From a bacterium (lineage in GTDB: Bacteria; Actinomycetota; Acidimicrobiia; Acidimicrobiales; Bin134), in assembly GCA_026708015.1 (NCBI GenBank), contig JAPOVT010000046.1:1-64000 (forward strand): a DNA stretch of 64,000 nt, read 5' to 3'. Shown in pieces: positions 4,047 to 19,833 of this stretch (positions are counted from its first letter, which is position 1; each line of letters starts with the position of its first letter). Position numbers and translations under genes: made by a program. The notes beneath the pieces are model-generated. The model saw only the letters and a list, made by a program, of their open reading frames with translations. It was not told the origin of the DNA and searched no databases.

Positions 4047-4739
4047 CTAGGAGGCGGCGGATCGCCTTTGGTATAGGGCTTCTTCTACTTGGAGGGCCCG
4101 GCTCTTGAGGTAGGAGATAACCTGCTCACGGGAGTCGTCGAAGAGCGGGTCGGCGTCTTTGGCCGACGGGAATCGCAGCCTGAAGACCATCTGGTCCAAG
4201 GCGGCGTTGTCCCACTGCGCCCCGAACTTCTGCTGCCAGCAGGCTAGCCCGTCTTCGAGGCTGAGGCCGCTGAGCCGGTCGACGGCGGCGAGGTCGATCA
4301 GATCGCGCAGCGTGCTCCGCCATCGGATCAGATCCAATTTGAGGGCCAGCAGGTCTTCCAGCGATGCCACCGGCATCGAGTCGATTGTCGGACCCTCCTG
4401 CAAAGTCGCTACTTCCCCGGAGCGGGAGTCGGCATTGGGATCCTCGAATACATGCACGCTCACCCTGTCGACGAGGGCGTGAACCTCATGGGCACTGAGG
4501 CCGATCATGGTGAAAGACTCGTCGGCCTCGGATTCCAACAGCGCTTTCACTCCTGAGGTGTCAACCGGGCTGGGGGCCAAGATGTCGATGTCCTCGCTGA
4601 TCCGATGCCTCAGATGGACGGTGACCGCGGTGCCCCCCACCAGCACACCTCCGCAGGCAACGGCGGCTTTGGCCGCCTTGGGCCACACCTCACGCTGGCG
4701 GCCACCGATCACCTCTTGCCACTGGTCGATCTGGCTCAC
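4047..4739 (-). CDS. AbiEii-type nucleotidyltransferase toxin
   Basis: About 230 residues. The GGTAVTVHLRHRISEDIDIL segment matches the nucleotidyltransferase core of the AbiEii/AbiGii toxin family (GG, then a D-x-D metal pair). Later residues (LEDLLALKLDLIRWR, then RDLIDLAAV) match the usual helical continuation. The start is taken as the GTG at 4739, which overlaps the stop of the upstream gene (GTGA); longer readings run into that gene. Relatives transfer nucleotides to targets such as tRNA ends and are neutralised by the co-transcribed partner. Partner order and overlap fit an antitoxin-toxin pair. The target of this protein is not evident from the sequence. Confidence 0.8.
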   Translation of the reverse strand: MSQIDQWQEVIGGRQREVWPKAAKAAVACGGVLVGGTAVTVHLRHRISEDIDILAPSPVDTSGVKALLESEADESFTMIGLSAHEVHALVDRVSVHVFEDPNADSRSGEVATLQEGPTIDSMPVASLEDLLALKLDLIRWRSTLRDLIDLAAVDRLSGLSLEDGLACWQQKFGAQWDNAALDQMVFRLRFPSAKDADPLFDDSREQVISYLKSRALQVEEALYQRRSAAS

Positions 4740-5947
4740 TTGGCTCCGATGGGGGTGGAATGCCCAGCCTTGCCTGATTCGTGTTCGAGCAGTTCGGCGA
4801 CGGCCATCTCCACGCTTGGGGGGCATCCCGGGATTCCGGTCTGGGCCACCAAGGTCTTGAGCGGCAAATGCCGCAGTGCCCATCGTCGGGCGTCGAAGTC
4901 CAGCAGCCGCCCGTTGAGCAGTCGATTGGCCACCACCATCGCGTCGCGGGGCAACCGGATGTCGGCGGGGTCGGGACCCGACCAGAACAGATACCAGATG
5001 TCGGCGGGCAGCGATTCAGGACAGGGCGCCCTCCGACGCCAGCGCATCATAGGCAGATAGGGGAGCAGGGCAGCGGCTGGATTGGTCGGAGCCAGCCTCC
5101 AATTCAGAATCCGTCGAGTTCGGTGCTTCCAAGGCACCTCAACAAACTCTGAGGCAACGTACCCGCCCCCCTCCAAGCCGCGCAGCACTCGCTGGGTGCT
5201 ACGGCGGGTGATGGCCGCGGCGTTGGCCACCGTGGACGAGTCGGCACCGCCCAGATACGAGCGCAACACCGTCAGCGCCAGCACCTCCGCCTCGGTGATC
5301 TTTGGGCGGGGGTGGGGCGGCAACGTCACTGCCAACTGCTCTGGCGGAGTCGGCGGTGTCAGCCAGCGGTCCACACCATCGGGAATCGCAGGCTGGTGAT
5401 CGGACAGCTCGGCGATCCAGCCCAACGGCTCGCGGCAGGATTCGCCGGGGCTGGCTGGACTGCTGTCGCCCTCGGCTTGCGTGATCCGGCGGGCGAGTTG
5501 TTGGGGCCGGTCATAGGGGCTGACTCGGCTTCCACATACTGAGTGAATTCCATCGGCCACCGTCCTAGCTGCCCCCGGAGAAATCCCGTCTACCTGGCTC
5601 AGCGTTCCTGGTCTGACCACAAACGGGCCGTTAGCGGTAAGGGCGGCACCGATGGCCCACGCCCGCAGCGGGGGGTGCCCTCGGGCCAACATGGTCCCGG
5701 TGCGCACGCTGTATCGCCGACGGCACCCGCCGCACCACCTTCGACCGGAGTCGTCGGGAAACCGGCTTTTGTCCTCCACCTCGCATCGAGGGCAGGCTGG
5801 GCCTTTTGGCCACCTGACCTGCTCGAAAAAGGAGACTGCCGCTGGCTCGTCTCCAAAGGTGCGGCAAATCTCCTCGACCGGAACCGCACTGGGATAGCAC
5901 AACGACACTGCCGCCACCGCGCCAACCCTACTCCCACGCAGCGACAC
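4736..5947 (-). CDS. Putative antitoxin: IS1595-like zinc ribbon fused to winged-helix domain
   Basis: About 403 residues. Residues about 25-125 resemble the N-terminal zinc-ribbon region of IS1595/ISXO2 transposases: an FEQVRWPKGPACPRC start, a CGGC second knuckle, then YSVRTGTML. No DDE catalytic domain follows. After a linker, residues about 215-270 form a helix-turn-helix-like unit (ITEAEVLALTVLRSYLGG, then STVANAAAITRRSTQRVL). The C-terminal part (LPADIWYLFWS, VVANRLLNGRLLD) resembles proteins encoded beside AbiEii-type nucleotidyltransferases. It ends in a GTGA overlap with the toxin gene, which supports coupled translation. Inferred role: DNA-binding antitoxin and autoregulator. The zinc-ribbon fusion is unusual. 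Confidence 0.6.
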   Translation of the reverse strand: MSLRGSRVGAVAAVSLCYPSAVPVEEICRTFGDEPAAVSFFEQVRWPKGPACPRCEVEDKSRFPDDSGRRWCGGCRRRYSVRTGTMLARGHPPLRAWAIGAALTANGPFVVRPGTLSQVDGISPGAARTVADGIHSVCGSRVSPYDRPQQLARRITQAEGDSSPASPGESCREPLGWIAELSDHQPAIPDGVDRWLTPPTPPEQLAVTLPPHPRPKITEAEVLALTVLRSYLGGADSSTVANAAAITRRSTQRVLRGLEGGGYVASEFVEVPWKHRTRRILNWRLAPTNPAAALLPYLPMMRWRRRAPCPESLPADIWYLFWSGPDPADIRLPRDAMVVANRLLNGRLLDFDARRWALRHLPLKTLVAQTGIPGCPPSVEMAVAELLEHESGKAGHSTPIGAK

Positions 5948-6053
5948 ATTTGCGCCGCAAACTAGAGATTATGTCACCAAGTATGAACATGCTCTCTCAG
6001 TGCCAGTTTTGTGGGTGGCGTTGGTAGCCTGAAAGGTCTGTCGGTGGAGCAGG

Positions 6054-6986
6054 ATGGTGAATTGGATGCGGGCACGTAGACGCCGGATGGTTGTCGCGGC
6101 AATGGCGGCAGTAACCGTGTTGCTGTTCGGCCTAGCCGCGTGCGGCAACGATGACGATGGGGCGGGCGCGCCACCGCCCCCTAAGACCGAGCGGGACGCC
6201 TACACCAAGTGGTATGTGCAGCAGGCCGTGAATCGATACGAAGAGACCGGTCGGCAGGCCACCCTCGACTATTACAACAATGAGGCGGGCGCCGACGACC
6301 AGTGGTACATATTCATCTCCGACACCGAAACGGGCACTATCGCGGCCCACGCCGCCATTCCCTCTCGGGTGGGCACCTACTCAGCCGACAATGTGGACAT
6401 AACCGGCCATGCTTACGGTGAGCTGCTGATGGCTTCGCCCGAGTCGGGTCACTGGGTGGACTACGTGTTCTACAACCCGCAAACCGGCACCGGCGCCACC
6501 AAGCACTCCTGGGCCGTCAGTCGGGACAACTTGGTCTTTGGCTCCGGCTGGTACGAGGACTCCTACCCCGTTCCCCGACCCACTAAATCCGAACCCGGTT
6601 CCTACACCAGGGCATTCGTCGAAGACACGGTGTGGTTCTATGAGAGCAACGGTCGGGGTGCACTGATTGACCATCTCAATTCCCCCGACAGCACCGACCC
6701 CGCCAGCGTGGACGGGCAGTGGTACGGGTTTGTCGCCGACCTCAACGGAGTAGTGCTTGCCCATCCGACAGTCCCGGAGTACGTGGGCATGACCCTTCAC
6801 GAGATACTCGGTGCCACTTCGGAGGGCCGGAGGGCCGCCGACGAGATGGCTACCACTACCGAGACGGGCAAGTGGGTGCAATACACCTCTACCAACCCTC
6901 TAACCGGGAGTCCCGCGCCCAAGCATTCCTGGGTGGTGAAGCGAGACGACGTCCTCATCGGCTCGGGCTGGTACGAGTCCGGCTAA
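6054..6986 (+). CDS. Lipoprotein with two Cache-like sensor domains
   Basis: About 310 residues. A basic start and a hydrophobic stretch lead to the lipobox LAAC (Cys near 30), so the protein should be a lipid-anchored exported protein. Two homologous halves follow (about 45-175 and 190-310). Each contains a Trp-Tyr pair after a long helix, then HPxxPxxVG or a similar variant, then a KHSW segment and an FGSGWYE or IGSGWYE ending. These are hallmarks of single-Cache ligand-binding domains. No transmembrane signalling partner (kinase, chemoreceptor or cyclase) is encoded nearby, so it is an orphan sensor or binding protein. The ligand is not predictable. Confidence 0.75.
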   Translation: MVNWMRARRRRMVVAAMAAVTVLLFGLAACGNDDDGAGAPPPPKTERDAYTKWYVQQAVNRYEETGRQATLDYYNNEAGADDQWYIFISDTETGTIAAHAAIPSRVGTYSADNVDITGHAYGELLMASPESGHWVDYVFYNPQTGTGATKHSWAVSRDNLVFGSGWYEDSYPVPRPTKSEPGSYTRAFVEDTVWFYESNGRGALIDHLNSPDSTDPASVDGQWYGFVADLNGVVLAHPTVPEYVGMTLHEILGATSEGRRAADEMATTTETGKWVQYTSTNPLTGSPAPKHSWVVKRDDVLIGSGWYESG

Positions 6987-7020
6987 GCCCCCTTTCGTCT
7001 CCGGGCGGGCAGCGCCGCGT

Positions 7021-8706
7021 CTAGGGCGAGATCAGCCCATCTTGGGGGTGGGCCCAGGGGAGTTTGGGCACATGTTCGATCTGCTTGGGCCGCTCCAGGG
7101 CAATATGGCCGATGGGGACGTCGATGATGACCGGTGCTGGTCGCTCCAAGGCCGTCGGTATCAGTCTCTCGAGGTCCATCGGGTCATCTGCTCTCAAGCC
7201 AATGGCACCGAACGACTCGGCGTACTTCACGAAGTCTGGGTTGGCGAGGTCGGTTTCGTGCGTGCCGCCGAACAAGTCGTCCAGGTCCCGGGCGACATTT
7301 CCGAATGAGTCATCTCTGAAGATGACGGTTGTGACGTTGATTCCGTACTTCACGGCAGTTGACAACTCCGATGAGTTGAACAGAAAGCCGCCGTCTCCGG
7401 CGACGCACACCACGGGGCGATCTGGTTGGGCCACCTTTGCTCCCAGCGCAGTGGGGAAGGCATATCCCAAATTGAACGAATAGCCGGAGTCGATGAAGGT
7501 CCTCGGCTGGTTCACCTGCCAGTGGGTACGTGAGTAGAAGCCGAACTGAGTGACGTCCCAGATTGTGAAGGCGTCTTCGGGTGTGCCCCGCTGAAGCGCT
7601 TCCAAGATGGGGTACTGCGGCTCCTTGAATCGGATGTCGTAGTAAGCGATGAGACGGCGGGCGGCGGCCACTGCCTCAGCCGGTGACGGGCGCTCTTGGC
7701 ATCCGGCCTCAATGAGCAGTGGCAGGAGCGCATTGATGGTCGCTTTGGCGTCACCGTGCAGGGGAATGGAGTTGGCTTGAATCCGGGTGAGGTCGAAGTC
7801 GTCGATGTTGATGTTCACGAGCGGCGACGATTCTCCCGCAGGATTGCCCAGGGAAAAGCGCGTTCCAATCCCGATGACCAAATCGGCGGTCTTCATCACA
7901 TCCAGCAGCTGGTTCAATTCGTGCCGCTCACCTCCGGGGCTGACGCATGAGCCGTAACACAGAGGATGGGAATCGGGGATGGCACCCTTTCCGCCGCCCG
8001 ACGTCACCACCGGGATGTTCGTGGCTTCGACCAACTCGAGGAGCGCTTGCTCTGCGCCGGAGAGAGCCACTCCGCCACCGGCGACGATCAGGGGAAGCCG
8101 GGATTGCGAGATGGCCGCCGCCGCGCCTTGCAGTTGTTCGCGGCTGGGTATAACTCGCGAGACCGGAACGGGATCCCGTAGCTCGACTTCATCTCGTTCC
8201 ACCAGGGCATCGGGCGGGCATTCGATGTAGGTCGGACGGGGACGGCCACTGCGCATTTGTCGAAATGCCTCCGACACGGCCTCGGGTATCTCTCTTGGCG
8301 TCATGGCTTGTTGGCGCCATTTGGTGAGGGATCGAACGATGTCCATCTGGTCGTCGATCTCATGGACGCCGCCCAGGTCTTTCCCCATTTGCCCTCGGGG
8401 AATCTGTCCGGCTAGGAGCAAGATCGGCGATGAGCGGGAGTAGGCGGTGGCCAATCCCCCTGATGCGTTGCATACCCCCACGCCGGGAACCACCAAGGCC
8501 ACTCCTGGCTTGCCCGACGCTCGGGCGTATCCGTAGGCCATGAAGGTCGAGGCCTGCTCGTGTCGATTGGTGACCATCTCGATGCCGGGCTCGTCTCGCA
8601 GCGCAGCCACGACTCCGTATAGCTGGATGCCGGGAATGCCAAAGACAACCTCGACACCCTCTCGGACCAGCGCTTTGACGAGAGCCTCGCCGCCGCTCAA
8701 CTGCAC
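7021..8706 (-). CDS. Thiamine diphosphate-dependent enzyme, acetolactate synthase-like
   Basis: About 561 residues with the three domains of the ALS/pyruvate-oxidase family. The N-terminal PYR domain has FGIPG and the catalytic Glu in RHEQAS. A central domain has GGGVALSGAEQA. The C-terminal PP domain has GDGGFLFN and a downstream Asn completing the ThDP/Mg motif (DDSFGN). The start is a GTG at 8706. There is no regulatory small subunit or other branched-chain gene nearby, so this is probably not the biosynthetic IlvB; a 2-hydroxyacyl-CoA lyase, benzoylformate decarboxylase or other paralogue is possible. Substrate unknown. Confidence 0.8.
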   Translation of the reverse strand: MQLSGGEALVKALVREGVEVVFGIPGIQLYGVVAALRDEPGIEMVTNRHEQASTFMAYGYARASGKPGVALVVPGVGVCNASGGLATAYSRSSPILLLAGQIPRGQMGKDLGGVHEIDDQMDIVRSLTKWRQQAMTPREIPEAVSEAFRQMRSGRPRPTYIECPPDALVERDEVELRDPVPVSRVIPSREQLQGAAAAISQSRLPLIVAGGGVALSGAEQALLELVEATNIPVVTSGGGKGAIPDSHPLCYGSCVSPGGERHELNQLLDVMKTADLVIGIGTRFSLGNPAGESSPLVNINIDDFDLTRIQANSIPLHGDAKATINALLPLLIEAGCQERPSPAEAVAAARRLIAYYDIRFKEPQYPILEALQRGTPEDAFTIWDVTQFGFYSRTHWQVNQPRTFIDSGYSFNLGYAFPTALGAKVAQPDRPVVCVAGDGGFLFNSSELSTAVKYGINVTTVIFRDDSFGNVARDLDDLFGGTHETDLANPDFVKYAESFGAIGLRADDPMDLERLIPTALERPAPVIIDVPIGHIALERPKQIEHVPKLPWAHPQDGLISP

Positions 8707-13411: not shown

Positions 13412-13945
13412 CTACTCAAGGTGATGCCACTGCCCGTTTTCGACACTCGCTGAGCGAACTACGTACAACTCGCCGTGGTGTGCATTACGCGAGAAAACAG
13501 CAAGCACTTCGCCACTTCCGGAAGCTGATGGGGCGAGAACTCCGCCAAAGCCCAGCGTGCTAGCGGCATCACCGACTCGTTGGCACGGTTCAAATGGGCC
13601 AACGAGAGCTTCAGATGAAAGACCTACGGCGGCCAATGCCCCACCAATGGTGAGATTGGCTACTACAAGCCTCGTGATGGCGATGGTGTAGACCATCCGA
13701 GGTAGGAATGACTCTGCTCCCGAGCCCTGACCCGTTGCCATGCGGTGGAACTCGGCTCGGCAGGTCTCCAGCGGTCTCGCCAGGTACACCGTTTCTATCC
13801 CTGGTGGATTCCATCGGTCTCCCATCTGGCTCGCACCGAAGCCTGAGAGGGGGTCGCGATTGGGCCCAGTGTGTCGATAAAAGACGCCATCGATTTGCGA
13901 TGGGCCAAGTTCGTCCAGCACTCGGTAAAGGTCGGGAGAAGCCAT
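13412..13945 (-). CDS. RES-domain toxin
   Basis: About 177 residues. The RES signature is clear: FYRHTGPNRDP, then GDRWNPPGIETVYLARPLET (the Arg, Glu and Tyr positions of the family) and CRAEFHR. RES toxins degrade NAD+ and are held in check by a co-encoded Xre-type antitoxin. The gene follows that antitoxin by 17 bp on the same strand. Codon use is less GC-biased than in the flanking housekeeping genes, which fits acquisition with the adjacent defence genes. No truncation is seen. Confidence 0.88.
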   Translation of the reverse strand: MASPDLYRVLDELGPSQIDGVFYRHTGPNRDPLSGFGASQMGDRWNPPGIETVYLARPLETCRAEFHRMATGQGSGAESFLPRMVYTIAITRLVVANLTIGGALAAVGLSSEALVGPFEPCQRVGDAASTLGFGGVLAPSASGSGEVLAVFSRNAHHGELYVVRSASVENGQWHHLE

Positions 13946-13962
13946 GTCTTGGGCGTGTGTGC

Positions 13963-14301
13963 TTATACAACGACGCCATCAGCCAGGGCTTCGATGACCG
14001 CCGCTACAGACTTAAAGTCGCCGCTATGAATCCTCTCCGCAGGCGTGTCCCCATCCAGCAGGCGGTTTGGCGAGAGGATCCATATGTTTGCGTATTCAGC
14101 CTCTAGCACAGCCTCTAGTTCCTGAGCGACATAAGCAAGTTCTAGGAGGCGTTGCCGGGAGAGGCGCTGTGGCTCGGTGACTCCAGCGGACCAGCGACTC
14201 ACTGACCGTCCACTTGCATCGACGATATCCCCGATATCGTCGTGTGTGAGCCGTGTGGAGTCAACGATTGAAGTCAACTTGTTAGCAAGGGCGCTACTCA
14301 C
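13963..14301 (-). CDS. Xre/MbcA/ParS-type antitoxin
   Basis: About 112 residues from a GTG at 14301 preceded by a GGGGAG ribosome site. The N-terminal half is a helix-turn-helix (LTHDDIGDIVDASGRSVSRW). The C-terminal half (LYAVAQELE-like helices, NRLLDGDTPAERIHSGDF) matches the toxin-binding domain of antitoxins that pair with RES toxins. It lies directly upstream of the RES gene and probably represses its own promoter. Confidence 0.85.
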   Translation of the reverse strand: MSSALANKLTSIVDSTRLTHDDIGDIVDASGRSVSRWSAGVTEPQRLSRQRLLELAYVAQELEAVLEAEYANIWILSPNRLLDGDTPAERIHSGDFKSVAAVIEALADGVVV

Positions 14302-14601: not shown

Positions 14602-15072
14602 TCAAACTTCTTCAGGCCCAGCCACAGGCTGAGCTGCATTTTGGCCCAGAGCAACTCGGACTGATTCTTCCACTGCATCGGCAACGGCTTCGGGGTTTTC
14701 GTGTTCCCAGAAGCGCATCACGGTCCAACCGGCCTCTTGGAGGTGAGTGTCGGTATCTTTGTCCCTCGCGATATTGCCGGTGATTTTGTCAGACCAGTAT
14801 TCCGGGTTGGTGGCGGGCTGGGTGTGGTGCTCGGGGCAGCCGTGCCAGTAGCAGCCGTCCACGAACACTGCGATCTTGGCCTTGCGGAACACTAGATCGG
14901 CCGTCCGGCGCAGCTCCGGCAGCGGCCGGGCCGCCACCCGATAGCGCAACCCCCGGCGATGTACCGCCGAGCGAACCGCCAGTTCCGGCTTGGTGTCGCG
15001 ACTGCGGTTCCCCTGCATCGACTTCCGAGTCGCCTCCGATGAAGCCCAAGACTCCTCCGGCAGCCCACCCAT
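14602..15072 (-). CDS. vsr: Very short patch repair (Vsr) endonuclease
   Basis: About 156 residues. Diagnostic features are MQGNRSRDTKPE near the N-terminus, ADLVFRKAKIAVFVDGCYWH and HGCPEH (active-site Asp and zinc-ligand region), and a C-terminal VMRFWEHE. Vsr nicks at T:G mismatches created by deamination of 5-methylcytosine. It is therefore the natural partner of the C5 methyltransferase encoded divergently at 16541. The two genes once shared a spacer of about 30 bp and are now separated by an inserted second restriction-modification unit. A 32-residue copy of its N-terminus lies at 16412-16510. Confidence 0.92.
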   Translation of the reverse strand: MGGLPEESWASSEATRKSMQGNRSRDTKPELAVRSAVHRRGLRYRVAARPLPELRRTADLVFRKAKIAVFVDGCYWHGCPEHHTQPATNPEYWSDKITGNIARDKDTDTHLQEAGWTVMRFWEHENPEAVADAVEESVRVALGQNAAQPVAGPEEV

Positions 15073-15206
15073 AGGCCGATGGTAGCGACAGAGCCTTCGT
15101 CATGTTGATCCCTGTAACTGTCATTGCCCACGGCTATCGTCAATTGATGCACTCACGTCAGCCTTTCGTAGCGGCGGAGTTCTTTGCCGGCATTGGCCTG
15201 GTGAGG
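15002..15206. repeat. Direct repeat copy A flanking the inserted R-M unit
   Basis: About 205 bp, repeated in the same orientation at 16440-16645. The first 65 bp (start of vsr) differ at one position. The last 76 bp (start of the C5 methyltransferase) are identical. The roughly 65 bp between them, which include the divergent start sites, differ at many positions. Copy A carries the intact vsr start and only a stub of the methyltransferase. Confidence 0.9.
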
Positions 15207-15263
15207 CCAGTTGGTCCCAGACGGTTCGTCGGTCGCAAGATGATGGAGGAAATGGCAATATGA
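15102..15263 (+). pseudogene. Stub of the C5 methyltransferase N-terminus
   Basis: An ATG at 15102 opens 53 codons. The first 35 match the start of the methyltransferase at 16541 (MHSRQPFVAAEFFAGIGLV is shared). Homology stops at 15206 and the frame ends at TGA 15261-15263. That stop overlaps the ATG of the inserted methyltransferase (ATGA at 15260), so translation of the stub could feed ribosomes to the newcomer. It is a remnant with no enzymatic core. Confidence 0.8.
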
Positions 15264-15982
15264 GCAGAGTTCAGAGCGACAGCCTGTTCGGCCAACAGAT
15301 GCCAGCACGTCGCGTACGCAATGGATTGCCAACCAACGACCTAGTGTTCAGCGCATACGCCGAGGGAAACGACTACGTGTTCCCGCGGATAATGGACTTG
15401 TACGTGGCGCCTAGCAGTGTTGTTGCCGACGTGACTTTCGGTAAAGGCGTTTTCTGGCGGAACGTTCCAGATGGAATGTATGAATTGCTGGCGACGGACA
15501 TTCAGACCGGCATCGACTGTAGGGCGCTTCCCTACGGCGATGGCGAAATCGACTGCGTTGTGCTTGACCCGCCGTATATGCACTCACCGGGGGGAACAGC
15601 GCACACTGCGCATCAGGCGTTCGAGCGCCATTACCGGAACAACGGGACAGGCAACAGGACGAACAAGAAGTACCACGAAGCCGTGCTCTCTCTGTACGAG
15701 GATGCCGGGGAGGAAGCGCACAGAGTGCTCCGCGACAGGGGTGTCTTGATAGTGAAGTGCCAGGACGAGGTGTGCTCCAACCGGCAGCGGTTCACCCATG
15801 TCGAGATCATGCAGGCATACGAACAACTGGGTTTCGTGGCCGAAGACCTGTTCGTGGTGATGCGAAAGAACCGGCCCGGTGTGAGCCGCGCAGTCAAGCA
15901 AGTACACGCACGGAAGAATCACTCGTACTTCCTGGTTTTCTGGAAGCCCGATGGCAGCAAGCGGGTATGGGAAGCGCCCTGA
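15260..15982 (+). CDS. DNA adenine/N4-cytosine methyltransferase of the inserted R-M unit
   Basis: About 240 residues. The catalytic motif IV is VVLDPPY (DPPY at residues 103-106). A motif-I-like segment ADVTFGKGVFWRNVP lies upstream at about 55-69, so the order is I then IV. A late GVLIVKCQDEV resembles the following Rossmann strand. DPPY indicates amino-methylation (N6-adenine or N4-cytosine). There is no separate target-recognition domain of typical size, so the recognition sequence cannot be guessed. The start overlaps the preceding stub (ATGA) and the stop overlaps the endonuclease start (TGATG). Base composition is lower in GC than the flanks. Confidence 0.8.
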   Translation: MSRVQSDSLFGQQMPARRVRNGLPTNDLVFSAYAEGNDYVFPRIMDLYVAPSSVVADVTFGKGVFWRNVPDGMYELLATDIQTGIDCRALPYGDGEIDCVVLDPPYMHSPGGTAHTAHQAFERHYRNNGTGNRTNKKYHEAVLSLYEDAGEEAHRVLRDRGVLIVKCQDEVCSNRQRFTHVEIMQAYEQLGFVAEDLFVVMRKNRPGVSRAVKQVHARKNHSYFLVFWKPDGSKRVWEAP

Positions 15983-16397
15983 TGGATGCCGTAGAACTGC
16001 TGGCGAACATAATACGCGAGCAGAGTCCAGAGGATATCTGGGCAACGCAGGATTCAGCATCGGCAACGGCAACCGTACATCGGAGATTGACATGGTGATC
16101 GAGGGGCATCGAACCGAGGTCAAGACCGCTTCGCTGGGCGCGAACGGCACATTTCAGTTCAACCACGTCCGTTTGGACCGAAACTATACTTTTCTACTGT
16201 GTCTTGGAATATGCCCTGAGCAAATCGTATTCAATGTCTGGCACAAGGACGAAGTGAATGACGGGCTAGCGGGGCGCTTGATAATGATGGCCCAGGACCA
16301 GGACATCACATACAAGATCACCAAGAAACTTGAAGACATGCGCCCTGTTGGCGAAATGATCAACACGCTTCTTGAGCGAATGGCGGCACCTGATTAG
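15982..16397 (+). pseudogene. PD-(D/E)XK-type restriction endonuclease, frameshifted
   Basis: The reading frame starting at ATG 15982 (MDAVELLANIIREQSPEDIW) must shift by one base near 16039-16042 to continue as GNAGFSIGNGN. After that the frame is open to 16397. Adding one G to the GGG run would restore a single protein of about 138 residues. The second frame holds the nuclease core: SEIDMVIEG then TEVKTA, giving a D...EVK pattern. Overlap with the methyltransferase stop (TGATG) supports a two-gene R-M unit. Either a real inactivating or phase-variable change or a sequencing error could explain the break. Confidence 0.7.
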
Positions 16398-16411
16398 TTG
16401 ACCGGACCCTT

Positions 16412-16510
16412 TTATGGGTCCAAGTGACGCATGCCTCGGCTGCGGTTCCCCTGCATCGACCTCCGAGTCGCCTCCGATGAAGCCCAAGACTCCTCCGGCA
16501 GCCCGCTCAT
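16412..16510 (-). pseudogene. Stub of vsr N-terminus
   Basis: An ATG at 16510 opens 32 codons. The first 25 differ from the start of Vsr at only two residues (MSGLPEESWASSEATRRSMQ), and then unrelated sequence leads to TAA at 16412. Homology breaks at 16440, the edge of the direct repeat. This is the vsr half of the second repeat copy and mirrors the methyltransferase stub at 15102. Confidence 0.8.
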
Positions 16511-16645
16511 GAGAGTGATGGTACCCACGGAGCCTTCTTGATGTTGATCACCGAAACTGTCATTGGCCACGGCTATCGTCAATTGATGCACTCACGTCAG
16601 CCTTTCGTAGCGGCGGAGTTCTTTGCCGGCATTGGCCTGGTGAGG
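16440..16645. repeat. Direct repeat copy B flanking the inserted R-M unit
   Basis: About 206 bp, partner of 15002-15206. It carries the vsr stub and the intact beginning of the C5 methyltransferase gene. The unique sequence between the two copies (15207-16439, about 1.23 kb) contains only the inserted methyltransferase and endonuclease. Confidence 0.9.
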
Positions 16646-17716
16646 GCTGGCTTGGAGCAGGCGGGTATCGACGTGGTGTGGGCGAATGACATTGAGCCGG
16701 TCAAGCATGCGGTGTATGCGGCCAACTTCGATGCTGCCCACTATGTCTTAGGAGACATTCGAAGGGTCAAGGGCACCTCGGTGCCTAGCGTCGACATCGC
16801 TACGGCCAGCTTCCCATGTGTTGATCTGTCTCTGGCCGGGAATCGGAAAGGGTTGGAAGGGGAGCAGTCGGGGTTGTTCTTTGAGTTTTCCCGAGTCCTG
16901 AGGGAGATGGGGGAGCGAATCCCGCCCGTGGTGATGATCGAGAATGTTCCATCGTTCGTTTCTTCCAGGGGAGGTGAAGACCTCCGAGCTTCGATCATGG
17001 TGCTCAACAAGTTGGGATACATCTGTGATGTGCTGACATTGGATGCAAGCTGGTTCGTGCCTCAGTCAAGGCCCCGCCTCTTCATCATCGGCACGAGTGA
17101 ACGACTAGGCGGTGCGTCTTCGGGGATGGCTGGGCCGCTGCGCTCCGAGTCGGTGGCCGCGTTCGTGAGGGCCAATCAAGATCTCATGCTTCAGGAGCTA
17201 TCACTGCTAATTCCACCCCAGGATACTCGCCGCCTCAGCGATGTCATAGAGCATCTCGATCTTGGCGACGGACGGTGGTGGGACGGCGAACGGTTTGGGA
17301 AGTTCATGGGATCGCTTTCTCCCCTCCATCAAGATCGCTTGGCTCTCCTAGAGCAAGACGGGGTTACCCATTGGCGCACTGCCTACCGACGGACCCGCAA
17401 CGGAGCACCTGTGTGGGAAATCCGCTCGGACGACATTTCCGGATGCCTCCGCACGGCACGAGGTGGTTCGTCTCGACAGGCAGTCGTCGTAGTCTCTCCA
17501 GATGGAGTACGAGCACGATGGATGACGCCGCGCGAATACGCCCGCCTTCAGGGAGTTCCTGATGAGTTCGACTATTCCGCAGTTACCGATGCTCAGGCGC
17601 TATTCGGCTTCGGTGACGCAGTTTGTGTGCCAGTGATCGAATGGCTCGCTGAACATGCGCTGGTGCCTGCTGCTATGGCGATGGGGAGTCGAGTAACCGC
17701 AAAGGCTGCTGTGTGA
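16541..17716 (+). CDS. DNA (cytosine-5)-methyltransferase
   Basis: About 391 residues from the ATG at 16541; the ATG at 16586 is an alternative. Motifs are in the canonical order: I (FFAGIGLVRAG), IV with the catalytic Cys (ASFPCVDLSLAG), VI (MIENVPSF), VIII (QSRPRLFIIG), then a target-recognition region and motifs IX-X (RLQGVPDEF, GFGDAVCVPV). It protects sites cut by the endonuclease encoded next and generates the deaminable 5-methylcytosine that Vsr repairs. The stop overlaps the next gene (GTGA). Confidence 0.93.
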   Translation: MLITETVIGHGYRQLMHSRQPFVAAEFFAGIGLVRAGLEQAGIDVVWANDIEPVKHAVYAANFDAAHYVLGDIRRVKGTSVPSVDIATASFPCVDLSLAGNRKGLEGEQSGLFFEFSRVLREMGERIPPVVMIENVPSFVSSRGGEDLRASIMVLNKLGYICDVLTLDASWFVPQSRPRLFIIGTSERLGGASSGMAGPLRSESVAAFVRANQDLMLQELSLLIPPQDTRRLSDVIEHLDLGDGRWWDGERFGKFMGSLSPLHQDRLALLEQDGVTHWRTAYRRTRNGAPVWEIRSDDISGCLRTARGGSSRQAVVVVSPDGVRARWMTPREYARLQGVPDEFDYSAVTDAQALFGFGDAVCVPVIEWLAEHALVPAAMAMGSRVTAKAAV

Positions 17717-18696
17717 ACGCCGAGAGCATTGCCGATGTGCTCGATGCCGACATCGAGCAGTGGTACGAGGCTCAACGCAACGAAGGCACAGTCAACCGCA
17801 ACGTGATGGCAGTTGGGCTCATCATGTGTGAGCACATGAGCACCCACTTTCCTCTCGACGAATCCAAGTGGTTCACCGGTTCTCAAGTCAGTCTTCTCGG
17901 CGGGACCCGAATAAAGAACATCCTTGCTCGGCACGGTGAGGAACGCCCTTTCGCCAGTGAGGGGGGTCGCACGAGCCGCGGGAGCCAAGACCTCGCCCGC
18001 TCGTTCCAGGATGTGGTCAACGGCTCATTGGTTGCGGAGGAATTCGAAGTTCTGGACGAGGACGAAAAGCTCTCTGCCATGAATCTCCTTCAGGCGAAGA
18101 TGGTCGGGCGTATTCGGGCTGACTTCTACGATCGCCAGCGCCTGCCACTGGAGATCGACTTTAACAAGCAGACTCGTCACACGTTCGACGGACTGCTAGC
18201 CGCCGCCAGAGAAAAGGGCGGCAACACGGTAGGGGCGGTGGCACAGCATCTCGTGGGAGCGACATTGGAGATCAGACACTCTGATCTTGCCATCGAGAAC
18301 CAGAGCTACACGACTGCCGACCAGCAGACAGGCCGAGCGGGGGATTTCATGGTCAACGACACTGCGATCCATGTGACTGTGGGCCCAACTGAGGCGCTTG
18401 TCGCGAAATGCCAAGTCAACATCGAACAGGGCTTTCGGCCCATGATCCTGACGCTTGAAGACAGGATAGGAACGGCCCGATCTCTCGCTGACTACATCGG
18501 TATCGAAGATCGCATCGCGGTTCGCGGTGTTGAGGAGTTCGTGGCCGGCAGTATCGATGAGATTGCCAGATACTCAGAACCAGAGACCCGCCGGGTGTTT
18601 CGCCAGCTCTTCGATGCATACAACTCACGTGTGGCGGCAGTGGAGCCGGATCCCTCACTGCTAGTAGAGGTACCTGAGAATCTGACTCAGACCTGA
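17713..18696 (+). CDS. DUF4928-like protein, probable type II restriction endonuclease
   Basis: About 327 residues, GTG start inside the methyltransferase stop codon. The sequence resembles the DUF4928 family found directly after C5 methyltransferases. Residues about 185-260 hold charged strand-like elements (AVAQHLVGATLEIRHSDL, GRAGDFMVNDTAIHVTV) that could be a PD-(D/E)XK core, with E and D-x-V positions. Position and coupling argue for the cognate nuclease. Activity and site are inferred, not shown. Confidence 0.65.
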   Translation: MNAESIADVLDADIEQWYEAQRNEGTVNRNVMAVGLIMCEHMSTHFPLDESKWFTGSQVSLLGGTRIKNILARHGEERPFASEGGRTSRGSQDLARSFQDVVNGSLVAEEFEVLDEDEKLSAMNLLQAKMVGRIRADFYDRQRLPLEIDFNKQTRHTFDGLLAAAREKGGNTVGAVAQHLVGATLEIRHSDLAIENQSYTTADQQTGRAGDFMVNDTAIHVTVGPTEALVAKCQVNIEQGFRPMILTLEDRIGTARSLADYIGIEDRIAVRGVEEFVAGSIDEIARYSEPETRRVFRQLFDAYNSRVAAVEPDPSLLVEVPENLTQT

Positions 18697-18714: not shown

Positions 18715-19833
18715 TTAGCCGATGGTGATTAGTTCGGGGAGGGTGCGGTGGTTGGAGAACAGGGCGGAGGCGGGGGAGGCGCCGGAGAGGGCATCGGCGG
18801 CCAGGATGACGGCGGCGGCGGTGTATGAGGTGCGCTCGTCGGCGGGGAAGTGAGTGCGCTCGGGGTGGACCATGCCGGTGAAGTAGGAGCCGTCGTCGGC
18901 CCGCAGGTCTTGCACCCATTCGAACATCTCGGCGGCAATGTCTCGGCGGCCCACGCCGAGGTGGGCGATGACGCTTTCGCAGGTCTCGGCGGCGGTGACC
19001 CAGGGCCGGTCGGACACGCAGCGCACTCCCAGGCCGTCCATCACGAACTGATCAAATTGGGAGGCCAGCCGGGCTCGGCCTTCCTGTCCGGTGATCACGC
19101 CCGACAGCACCGGGTAGTACCAGTCCATGGCCCAGCGGTCTTTGGGGGCGAAGGCGTCGGGCTGGGTTCGGATCACGTCGGCCAGCCGAGCCGCGCTCAG
19201 CTCCCAGTCTGGTCGCTCGTGGCCCAACGCCTCGCCGGTGGCGATCGCCGCCCGCAGGCTGTGGCAGATACTGGACGACCCGGTGAGCAGGGCGAACGAC
19301 CACGGGGTGCCGTCGGCGTGGCGGGCCCAGCGGATCTCGCCTCGGGGAAGCTGCAAGTCGAGGACAAAGTCCACGGCCCGCTCCACCACCGGCCACATTG
19401 ACTCCAGGAAGCTCCGATCGCCGGTACACAGGTAGTGGTGCCACACCCCGGCAGCCACGTAGGCCACGCAGTTGGCGTCCAGCTTGTCTTGCTCCACGCC
19501 GTCGGCCACGTAGTACTGGTGCCAGGCGCCGTCGGGCCGCTGATAGTCCATCAGCCATTGGTAGGCCCGCTCGGCCTCGACTCGGCGGCCCATCACCGAC
19601 AGGGCCATGGCTGCCTCCACATGGTTCCACGGATCGGCGTGGCCGTCGGGGAACCAGGGAATCATGCCGTTGGGCAGCTGCCAGTCGGCGATGCTGGCGG
19701 CGGTTAGTTCGAGATCGGACGCCGACAAAACGCCAGCCACGCAAGGTCCGTCGGAATCGCTGCCTCCGGGGGTGGGGGAGTCAGCATCGGCAAGCTCGGT
19801 CTCCCGTTGGTTGTGGGATTCAGACGGCGACAA
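18715..19833 (-). CDS. Alpha/alpha-barrel prenyltransferase/glycosidase-like protein
   Basis: About 372 residues, TTG start at 19833 overlapping the end of the methyltransferase gene by 14 bases. It shows repeated helical pairs with motifs such as ADWQLPNGMIPWFPDGHADP, WLMDYQRPDGAWHQYY and WYYPVLSGVI, typical of six-hairpin or terpenoid-cyclase-like (alpha/alpha)6 barrels. The QxPDG-type repeats recall prenyltransferase/squalene-cyclase repeats and GH15-like enzymes. It is the last gene of a three-gene unit with a GT4 glycosyltransferase and a methyltransferase, so a role in glycan processing is inferred. Confidence 0.6.
   Translation of the reverse strand: MSPSESHNQRETELADADSPTPGGSDSDGPCVAGVLSASDLELTAASIADWQLPNGMIPWFPDGHADPWNHVEAAMALSVMGRRVEAERAYQWLMDYQRPDGAWHQYYVADGVEQDKLDANCVAYVAAGVWHHYLCTGDRSFLESMWPVVERAVDFVLDLQLPRGEIRWARHADGTPWSFALLTGSSSICHSLRAAIATGEALGHERPDWELSAARLADVIRTQPDAFAPKDRWAMDWYYPVLSGVITGQEGRARLASQFDQFVMDGLGVRCVSDRPWVTAAETCESVIAHLGVGRRDIAAEMFEWVQDLRADDGSYFTGMVHPERTHFPADERTSYTAAAVILAADALSGASPASALFSNHRTLPELITIG

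What the first reader, a model, noticed from the sequence alone, without database searches (positions are those of the whole stretch)
15002..16645. Restriction-modification unit lodged between vsr and a C5 methyltransferase inside a 205-bp direct repeat
The unique 1.23-kb insert (15207-16439) contains only an amino-methyltransferase and a PD-(D/E)XK nuclease. Its flanks are direct copies spanning the start of vsr and the start of the C5 methyltransferase. Intact vsr lies left and intact methyltransferase right, each with a stub of the other on the opposite side. Reconstructing a single copy restores a simple divergent vsr/methyltransferase pair. This matches the published idea of insertion with long target duplication for R-M genes (Kobayashi and colleagues). 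Unlike a fresh duplication, the spacer between the two starts differs strongly between copies while the coding edges are nearly identical. One R-M system may thus have used another as its landing site.
Basis: partly seen in the sequence, partly recalled or inferred. Interest (0 to 1): 0.75.

Follow-up and report, generated by a model that had tools for sequence, protein, structure and literature searches.

The report
Restriction genes nested inside restriction locus
In a bacterium that is probably of the sponge-associated genus Poriferisocius, a DNA-methylase gene and a frameshifted nuclease gene sit between two unequal copies of the start of another restriction system; a sister species carries the same methylase-fragment junction in a different setting, so the piece likely spreads by recombination and carries a scrap of an earlier landing site with it.

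Summary
The structure is real: intact vsr, a 36-codon C5-methyltransferase (C5M) stub, an amino-MTase, a nuclease gene, a vsr stub, then intact C5M and its DUF4928 restriction partner. The direct repeat is 209 columns at 91.9%. Removing insert plus one copy gives a locus that aligns with relative G003 over 1,623 bp without a gap. Corrections: (1) The nuclease gene has lost 85 bp between 12-bp repeats and is frameshifted; it is intact in relatives. (2) The copies are not of one age: vsr edge 5/75 differences, spacer 12/58, C5M edge 0/76 (spacer vs C5M p=2e-5). (3) A same-genus genome (G018 = L001) has the same stub-insert junction, but right of it a piece of another C5M type and no right-hand vsr/C5M copy; insert dS between the two is 0.21, pooled flanks 0.37. 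(4) In 22 genomes this interval is a turnover hotspot; one relative has a RES-type module between vsr and a vsr stub. R-M into R-M, and R-M insertion with long duplication, are both published. I read this as a recombination-built variant of that known kind; a one-step target duplication plus later gene conversion is not excluded.

The parts
14602..15072 (-). vsr, intact very-short-patch endonuclease gene; its first ~25 codons are in the left repeat
   Evidence: TIGR00632 129.9 bits; PF03852; vsr/flank dS ratio 1.49 (13 pairs with the window) against 1.50 (78 other pairs)
14999..15206 (.). left repeat copy: vsr start, spacer, codons 1-36 of the C5M ORF (35 counted from the ATG at 15102)
15102..15263 (+). 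C5M stub ORF, 53 codons, its TGA overlapping the ATG of the amino-MTase; open in G018 too
   Evidence: cluster on 6 contigs
15207..15259 (+). junction leader between stub and amino-MTase, 53 bases, 5 differences from G018
15260..15982 (+). amino-MTase (N6-adenine or N4-cytosine), PF01555
   Evidence: 38.5 bits, cut-off 26.7; 95% identical in G018; PADLOC weak: mad2 1.6e-5, MTase_II 3.5e-5
15982..16397 (+). restriction nuclease gene, frameshifted by an 85-bp deletion at the single 12-bp repeat copy (16033); native frame stops after 38 codons, the rest is open in the ORF that starts at 15951
   Evidence: full length in L001 and in all 11 relatives read; PADLOC REase_II 2.2e-17 for L001, 2e-14 for the window's ORF
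16398..16436 (.). right junction: tail shared with G018 to 16408, then ~27 bases of uncertain origin
16437..16645 (.). right repeat copy: vsr stub (start codon at 16510, minus strand), spacer, C5M start
16538..17716 (+). C5 cytosine methyltransferase, intact
   Evidence: TIGR00675 173.1 bits, PF00145 174 bits
17713..18696 (+). DUF4928 restriction endonuclease partner of C5M, overlapping its stop
   Evidence: PF16280 323 bits; PADLOC REase_II 5.7e-68
18715..19833 (-). right anchor gene of the hotspot (called GH15-like here; my label, its glycosidase matches are below the curated cut-offs), next to vsr in relatives without C5M

Best explanation
A two-gene restriction-modification unit already fused to the first 36 codons of a C5 methyltransferase likely entered this vsr-C5M-DUF4928 locus by recombination with shared vsr/C5M sequence, which would leave a truncated second vsr and a complete C5M on its right, rather than jumping in and copying its target in one step. 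Shown: the anatomy, the shared stub-insert junction in two species, the differing right junctions, the uneven divergence of the two copies, the frameshifted nuclease. Inferred: one end joined by homology in vsr, spacer or C5M start and the other by end joining or microhomology at vsr codon ~25; the C5M edge of the two copies was later made identical by gene conversion; the amino-MTase is now transcribed with the C5M start region. Predicted consequence: the repeat allows precise loss of the insert, and with its nuclease broken the unit could no longer punish that loss.
For: Same junction (C5M codon 36, 53-bp leader, MTase) in window and G018/L001, different right contexts. In G018 the stub is nearest the short C5M type (of 70 bases: 10 differences from G002, 15 from the window, 16 from G003, 25 and 32 from the long-type G020 and G004), yet the DNA right of the nuclease matches G014's long-type N-terminus and its deletion junction (85 ungapped bases, 82%), and the SOD-plus-leader stretch on the left is that of G004, whose C5M is long-type (669/727): at least two alleles met there. 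Insert dS window-G018 0.21 (0.15-0.28) against 0.37 (0.33-0.41) for five pooled flanking genes. Copies differ by 5/75, 12/58, 0/76; the left spacer is nearer G003 and G020 (10/59 each) than the right spacer (12/59), and no spacer column has a base found in the two copies alone (0 columns against 8 other sequences). DUF4928 was exchanged as well: dS to G004 0.18 against pooled flanks 0.40. G014 has vsr - RES-type module - vsr stub - C5M remnant, 119-bp repeat at 76%.
Against: The vsr edges of the two copies are nearer to each other (5/75) than the left one is to any of 15 other vsr genes (7-11) and share a codon (GAT) that none of the other rows has, as a true duplication predicts. The C5M stub in the window is identical to the resident C5M and 15/76 from G018's stub, so a conversion step has to be added. 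G018's stub could be native to an SOD-type locus with a short C5M, and G018 might have lost a right-hand copy by deletion. GH15 and GT4 alone have dS intervals (0.24-0.41, 0.23-0.38) that overlap the amino-MTase's (0.14-0.30), and low dS could also reflect constraint. The 27-base right junction has no proven source.
Confidence: 0.48

Rival explanations
1. One-step insertion with long target duplication (Nobusato and Kobayashi type): the unit inserted in a vsr-C5M locus and the ~207-bp target was doubled; later gene conversion made the C5M edges identical, while spacer and vsr edge drifted. G018 got the stub-insert chimera secondarily.
For: Repeat length, empty site with one copy in G003; vsr edges nearest to each other; spacer divergence (12/58) is of the same size as insert dS to G018 (0.21), as if both began together; published precedent.
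Against: Even divergence rejected (p=2e-5); in G018 the pieces on the two sides of the unit are of different C5M types; no spacer base is shared by the two copies alone.
Confidence: 0.36
2. Tandem duplication of vsr-C5M first, then replacement of the DNA between the two copies by the amino-MTase/nuclease unit.
For: Both repeat copies are in direct order with complementary stubs; direct repeats within the locus were also found in G002, G011, G014 and G020 (with the window 5 of 21 stretches).
Against: Between the C5M stub and the vsr stub no further piece of C5M or DUF4928 matches (L012); the shared G018 junction then needs a second coincidence.
Confidence: 0.1
3. Assembly artefact or chimera of strains.
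For: The genome is a draft of 67 contigs and the repeats differ.
Against: Identical amino-MTase on 6 contigs and the stub ORF cluster on 6 contigs; same left junction in G018.
Confidence: 0.03
4. Nuclease-driven homing: the nuclease cuts the C5M motif-I region and the unit copies itself in by repair.
Confidence: 0.02

Closest known systems
R-M insertion with long target duplication (Nobusato et al. 2000, Gene 259:99; not held, seen only as cited in passages of PMC3874152, PMC3031569, PMC1643837, PMC2630997)
   Same: R-M genes between direct repeats of the order of 100 bp or more, no transposase found in the insert, relative with one copy
   Different: Copies are not of one age; the C5M stub is also present beside the insert in another species with another C5M type on the far side
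R-M inserted into R-M: CupORF237P of Campylobacter upsaliensis and the H. pylori case (passages of PMC2630997)
   Same: One R-M gene pair lying inside another R-M locus
   Different: Here the host R-M genes stay complete because part of them is doubled; the inserted nuclease is broken (how those cases are built I did not see)
vsr-C5 MTase-restriction enzyme type II loci (general kind, recalled)
   Same: Divergent vsr and C5M, REase gene overlapping C5M
   Different: Carries a second R-M unit and a second vsr start

Membership tests
R-M insertion with long target duplication | R-M genes flanked by direct repeats of the order of 100 bp or more | tested here: met
   209 columns, 91.9%
R-M insertion with long target duplication | empty allele with a single copy in a relative | tested here: met
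   of 4 relatives compared, G003 aligns to the single-copy join over 1,623 bp with 0 gaps; G011 and G013 in one piece with 13 gap columns; G002 in two pieces
R-M insertion with long target duplication | both copies derive from one target at one time (even divergence) | tested here: not met
   5/75, 12/58, 0/76; Fisher 2e-5
R-M insertion with long target duplication | stubs made by the insertion, not carried by the insert | tested here: inconclusive
   stub-insert junction shared with G018, with another C5M type on its right; direction of transfer unknown
Type II R-M system (the insert) | DNA MTase linked to a restriction nuclease | tested here: met
   PF01555; REase_II model for the L001 nuclease 2.2e-17; same pair in L001-L006 and L008, 7 of 11 loci
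Type II R-M system (the insert) | intact nuclease in the window | tested here: not met
   85-bp deletion, native frame lost after codon ~21
Type II R-M system (host locus) | C5M plus restriction gene | tested here: met
IS or transposon | transposase or terminal inverted repeats | tested here: not met
   no transposase family among the matches of the two insert genes; none of the 4 inverted-repeat pairs (16 bases or more) lies at the insert ends
Homing endonuclease | cuts the uninterrupted target | not testable with these tools
   fold likeness only

The most novel reading that the evidence does not exclude
R-M units spread within a genus as chimeras that keep the 5' scrap of the R-M gene they last interrupted; that scrap is their homology arm and their promoter-leader, so each landing in a relative's vsr-C5M locus is aimed by the previous one, and the vsr start acts as a repeated docking point for R-M and toxin-antitoxin cargo.
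Probability: 0.18. Interest if true: 0.7.

Novelty: new variant of a known kind. Interest (0 to 1): 0.45.

Why it matters
How R-M genes without a transposase move is an old question. Here two species catch the same R-M unit with the same captured gene stub but different surroundings, which makes two accounts of the long duplications separable: target copying by insertion, or recombination guided by a carried fragment. Strain-level sequencing of the host genus could decide it.

Tried and rejected
Viral contigs gave no relative of the amino-MTase (14 pattern hits, 0 confirmed). Plasmids gave 3 records and phages 9, all under 60% identity, so no carrier was found. No PDB sequence matched the window's nuclease ORF (E up to 1) or the amino-MTase (E up to 0.1). 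Promoter and terminator scans were at chance (1 found, 0.8 expected; 1 found, 1.6 expected). I asked whether the ~27 bases right of the insert come from the long-type C5M N-terminus. With the shared tail included, local scores were reached by 1 (G018), 56 (G020), 147 (G014) and 921 (G004) of 1,000 shuffles. Without it, global scores were reached by 0.1% (G020), 0.5% (G018), 0.7% (G014) and 40% (G004), local scores by 5.5% or more in all four. I do not rely on it. I asked whether the window's vsr is foreign: it is not unusual (1.49 against 1.50). An IS-borne move was set aside: no transposase match in the insert. Selection on the stub as the cause of 0/76 is unlikely, because synonymous sites are identical too (inference). 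The paper PMC2853133 is not held. That I know no published case like this rests only on searches.

Full report
Observation. The window carries vsr (14602-15072, minus), then a 36-codon C5M stub, an amino-MTase (15260-15982), a nuclease gene, a vsr stub, and the complete C5M (16538-17716) and DUF4928 gene (17713-18696). The direct repeat is 209 columns at 91.9%. Segment differences are 5/75 (vsr edge), 12/58 (spacer), 0/76 (C5M edge); spacer against C5M edge p=2.1e-5, spacer against vsr edge p=0.020, vsr against C5M edge p=0.028.

Where else. In the 22 genomes of the genus the amino-MTase is in 2: G000 and G018. In the order sample 9 of 397 genomes match, G000 and G018 at 100 and 95%, the next at 72%. 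In the other 10 loci from genome contigs (L002-L011) no vsr, C5M or DUF4928 matches were found in the DNA held, and in the loci compared there (L002-L010) upstream DNA does not align with the window's stub or leader. The protein library holds many relatives (7,765 of the 7,999 candidates scored, a capped list), so the unit itself is common. The organism is inferred: a 93% relative is named Candidatus Poriferisocius, an acidimicrobial genus.

The hotspot. Anchored by the DUF1214 gene on the left and the GH15-like gene (my label) on the right, the interval varies. Seven of 22 genomes have vsr directly beside the right anchor with no C5M between (G007, G008, G010, G012, G015, G017, G021). G002, G003, G011 and G013 have a simple vsr-C5M pair (DUF4928 in two frames in G011; the G002 contig ends behind DUF4928). 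G020 has a long-type C5M and a truncated DUF4928. G004 has vsr-SOD-C5M-DUF4928 (SOD named by my reading of translations, no family search). G014 has vsr-RES-type module-vsr stub-C5M remnant-DUF4928 remnant. G018 is described below. In G001 and G019 vsr and the right anchor lie on different contigs; in G005, G006, G009 and G016 one or both were not found. The single-copy join of the window aligns to G003 in one piece of 1,623 bp without gaps. Self-comparison found direct repeats in the window, G002, G011, G014 and G020, 5 of 21 stretches; in G011 most lie inside one repeat-rich ORF.

The sister locus. G018 reads vsr-SOD-C5M stub-amino-MTase-intact nuclease-C5M N-terminal piece-DUF4928 remnant. 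The stub is nearest the short C5M type (10 of 70 differences from G002, 16 from G003, 15 from the window, 25 and 32 from long-type G020 and G004). The DNA right of the nuclease is like G014's long-type N-terminus through the same deletion (82% over 85 ungapped bases), and the SOD-plus-leader stretch on the left is like that of G004, whose C5M is long-type (669/727). So sequences of two C5M types meet there. That the stub came in with the insert is the simpler reading; a native short-type stub on the left with a long-type piece from elsewhere on the right is possible too. Insert dS between window and G018 is 0.21 (0.15-0.28), five pooled flanking genes 0.37 (0.33-0.41), 0 of 1,000 bootstraps with insert at or above flank; of single flanking genes, GH15 and GT4 overlap the amino-MTase's interval. 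So the insert seems shared more recently than its flanks, and since the junction is shared, exchange after the fusion is indicated in at least one direction. DUF4928 shows the same kind of exchange with G004 (0.18 against 0.40), and C5M of G011 and G013 is unusually distant from the window's (dS 1.17 and 1.12, flanks 0.45).

Reading. A one-age duplication does not fit. Two accounts stay: a carried stub that guided recombination (my choice), or a true target duplication with later conversion at the C5M edge. For the second speaks that the two vsr edges are nearest to each other (5/75 against 7-11 and 6-11 to 15 others). For the first speak the G018 context, the differing right junctions, and that the spacers share no base that is theirs alone (0 columns). 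Both need a conversion step for 0/76. The vsr of the left side looks vertically inherited.

Function. Shown: the stub ORF is open in both species and its stop overlaps the MTase start. Inferred: the amino-MTase is expressed with the C5M start region. With the nuclease frameshifted the unit is predicted to be a solitary MTase, so that loss by recombination between the repeats should carry no penalty.

Known or new. A review passage states that some R-M systems can insert with long and variable target duplications, in the order of 100 bp (PMC3874152, passages; likewise PMC3031569, passages; PMC1643837, passages). Insertion of one R-M into another is reported for Campylobacter upsaliensis and said to have been suggested for H. 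pylori (PMC2630997, passages). Of the primary papers, PMC2853133 is not held and Nobusato et al. 2000 was seen only as a citation. This case is thus a variant of a known kind.

Noticed in passing
L096 (G014) ~4493-6850: A RES gene with a small neighbouring ORF (taken for its antitoxin, untested) lies between an intact vsr and a vsr stub (119-bp repeat, 76%); in the window the like module (13412-14301) lies left of vsr.
   Followed up: partly
L089 (G004), L099 (G018), L088 (G003), L094 (G012): A gene that reads like a superoxide-dismutase lipoprotein is right of vsr in G004 and G018 and left of vsr in G003 and G012, so gene order around vsr is shuffled.
   Followed up: no
L093 (G011; coordinates on the flipped strand) 6382-8348: Between DUF4928 and the right anchor lie a 95-bp copy of the DUF1214 gene end (72%), an ORF that reads like a PIN toxin and a repeat-rich ORF with ~110-bp internal repeats.
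   Followed up: no
L100 (G020) 4443-4487 and 6505-6549: A 45-bp direct repeat (87%) links the DNA left of vsr with the broken end of DUF4928, another partial duplication of the locus edge.
   Followed up: no
L087 (G002) 1779-1884: A 40-bp repeat (97.5%), 66 bp from start to start, doubles part of the vsr-C5M spacer.
   Followed up: no
C5M 5' ends in L089, L100, L096, L099: C5M has a short and a long N-terminal type (about 130-150 bp more); G004 is long-type although the window, its nearest C5M and DUF4928 relative in the trees, is short-type. The role of the extension is unassigned.
   Followed up: partly
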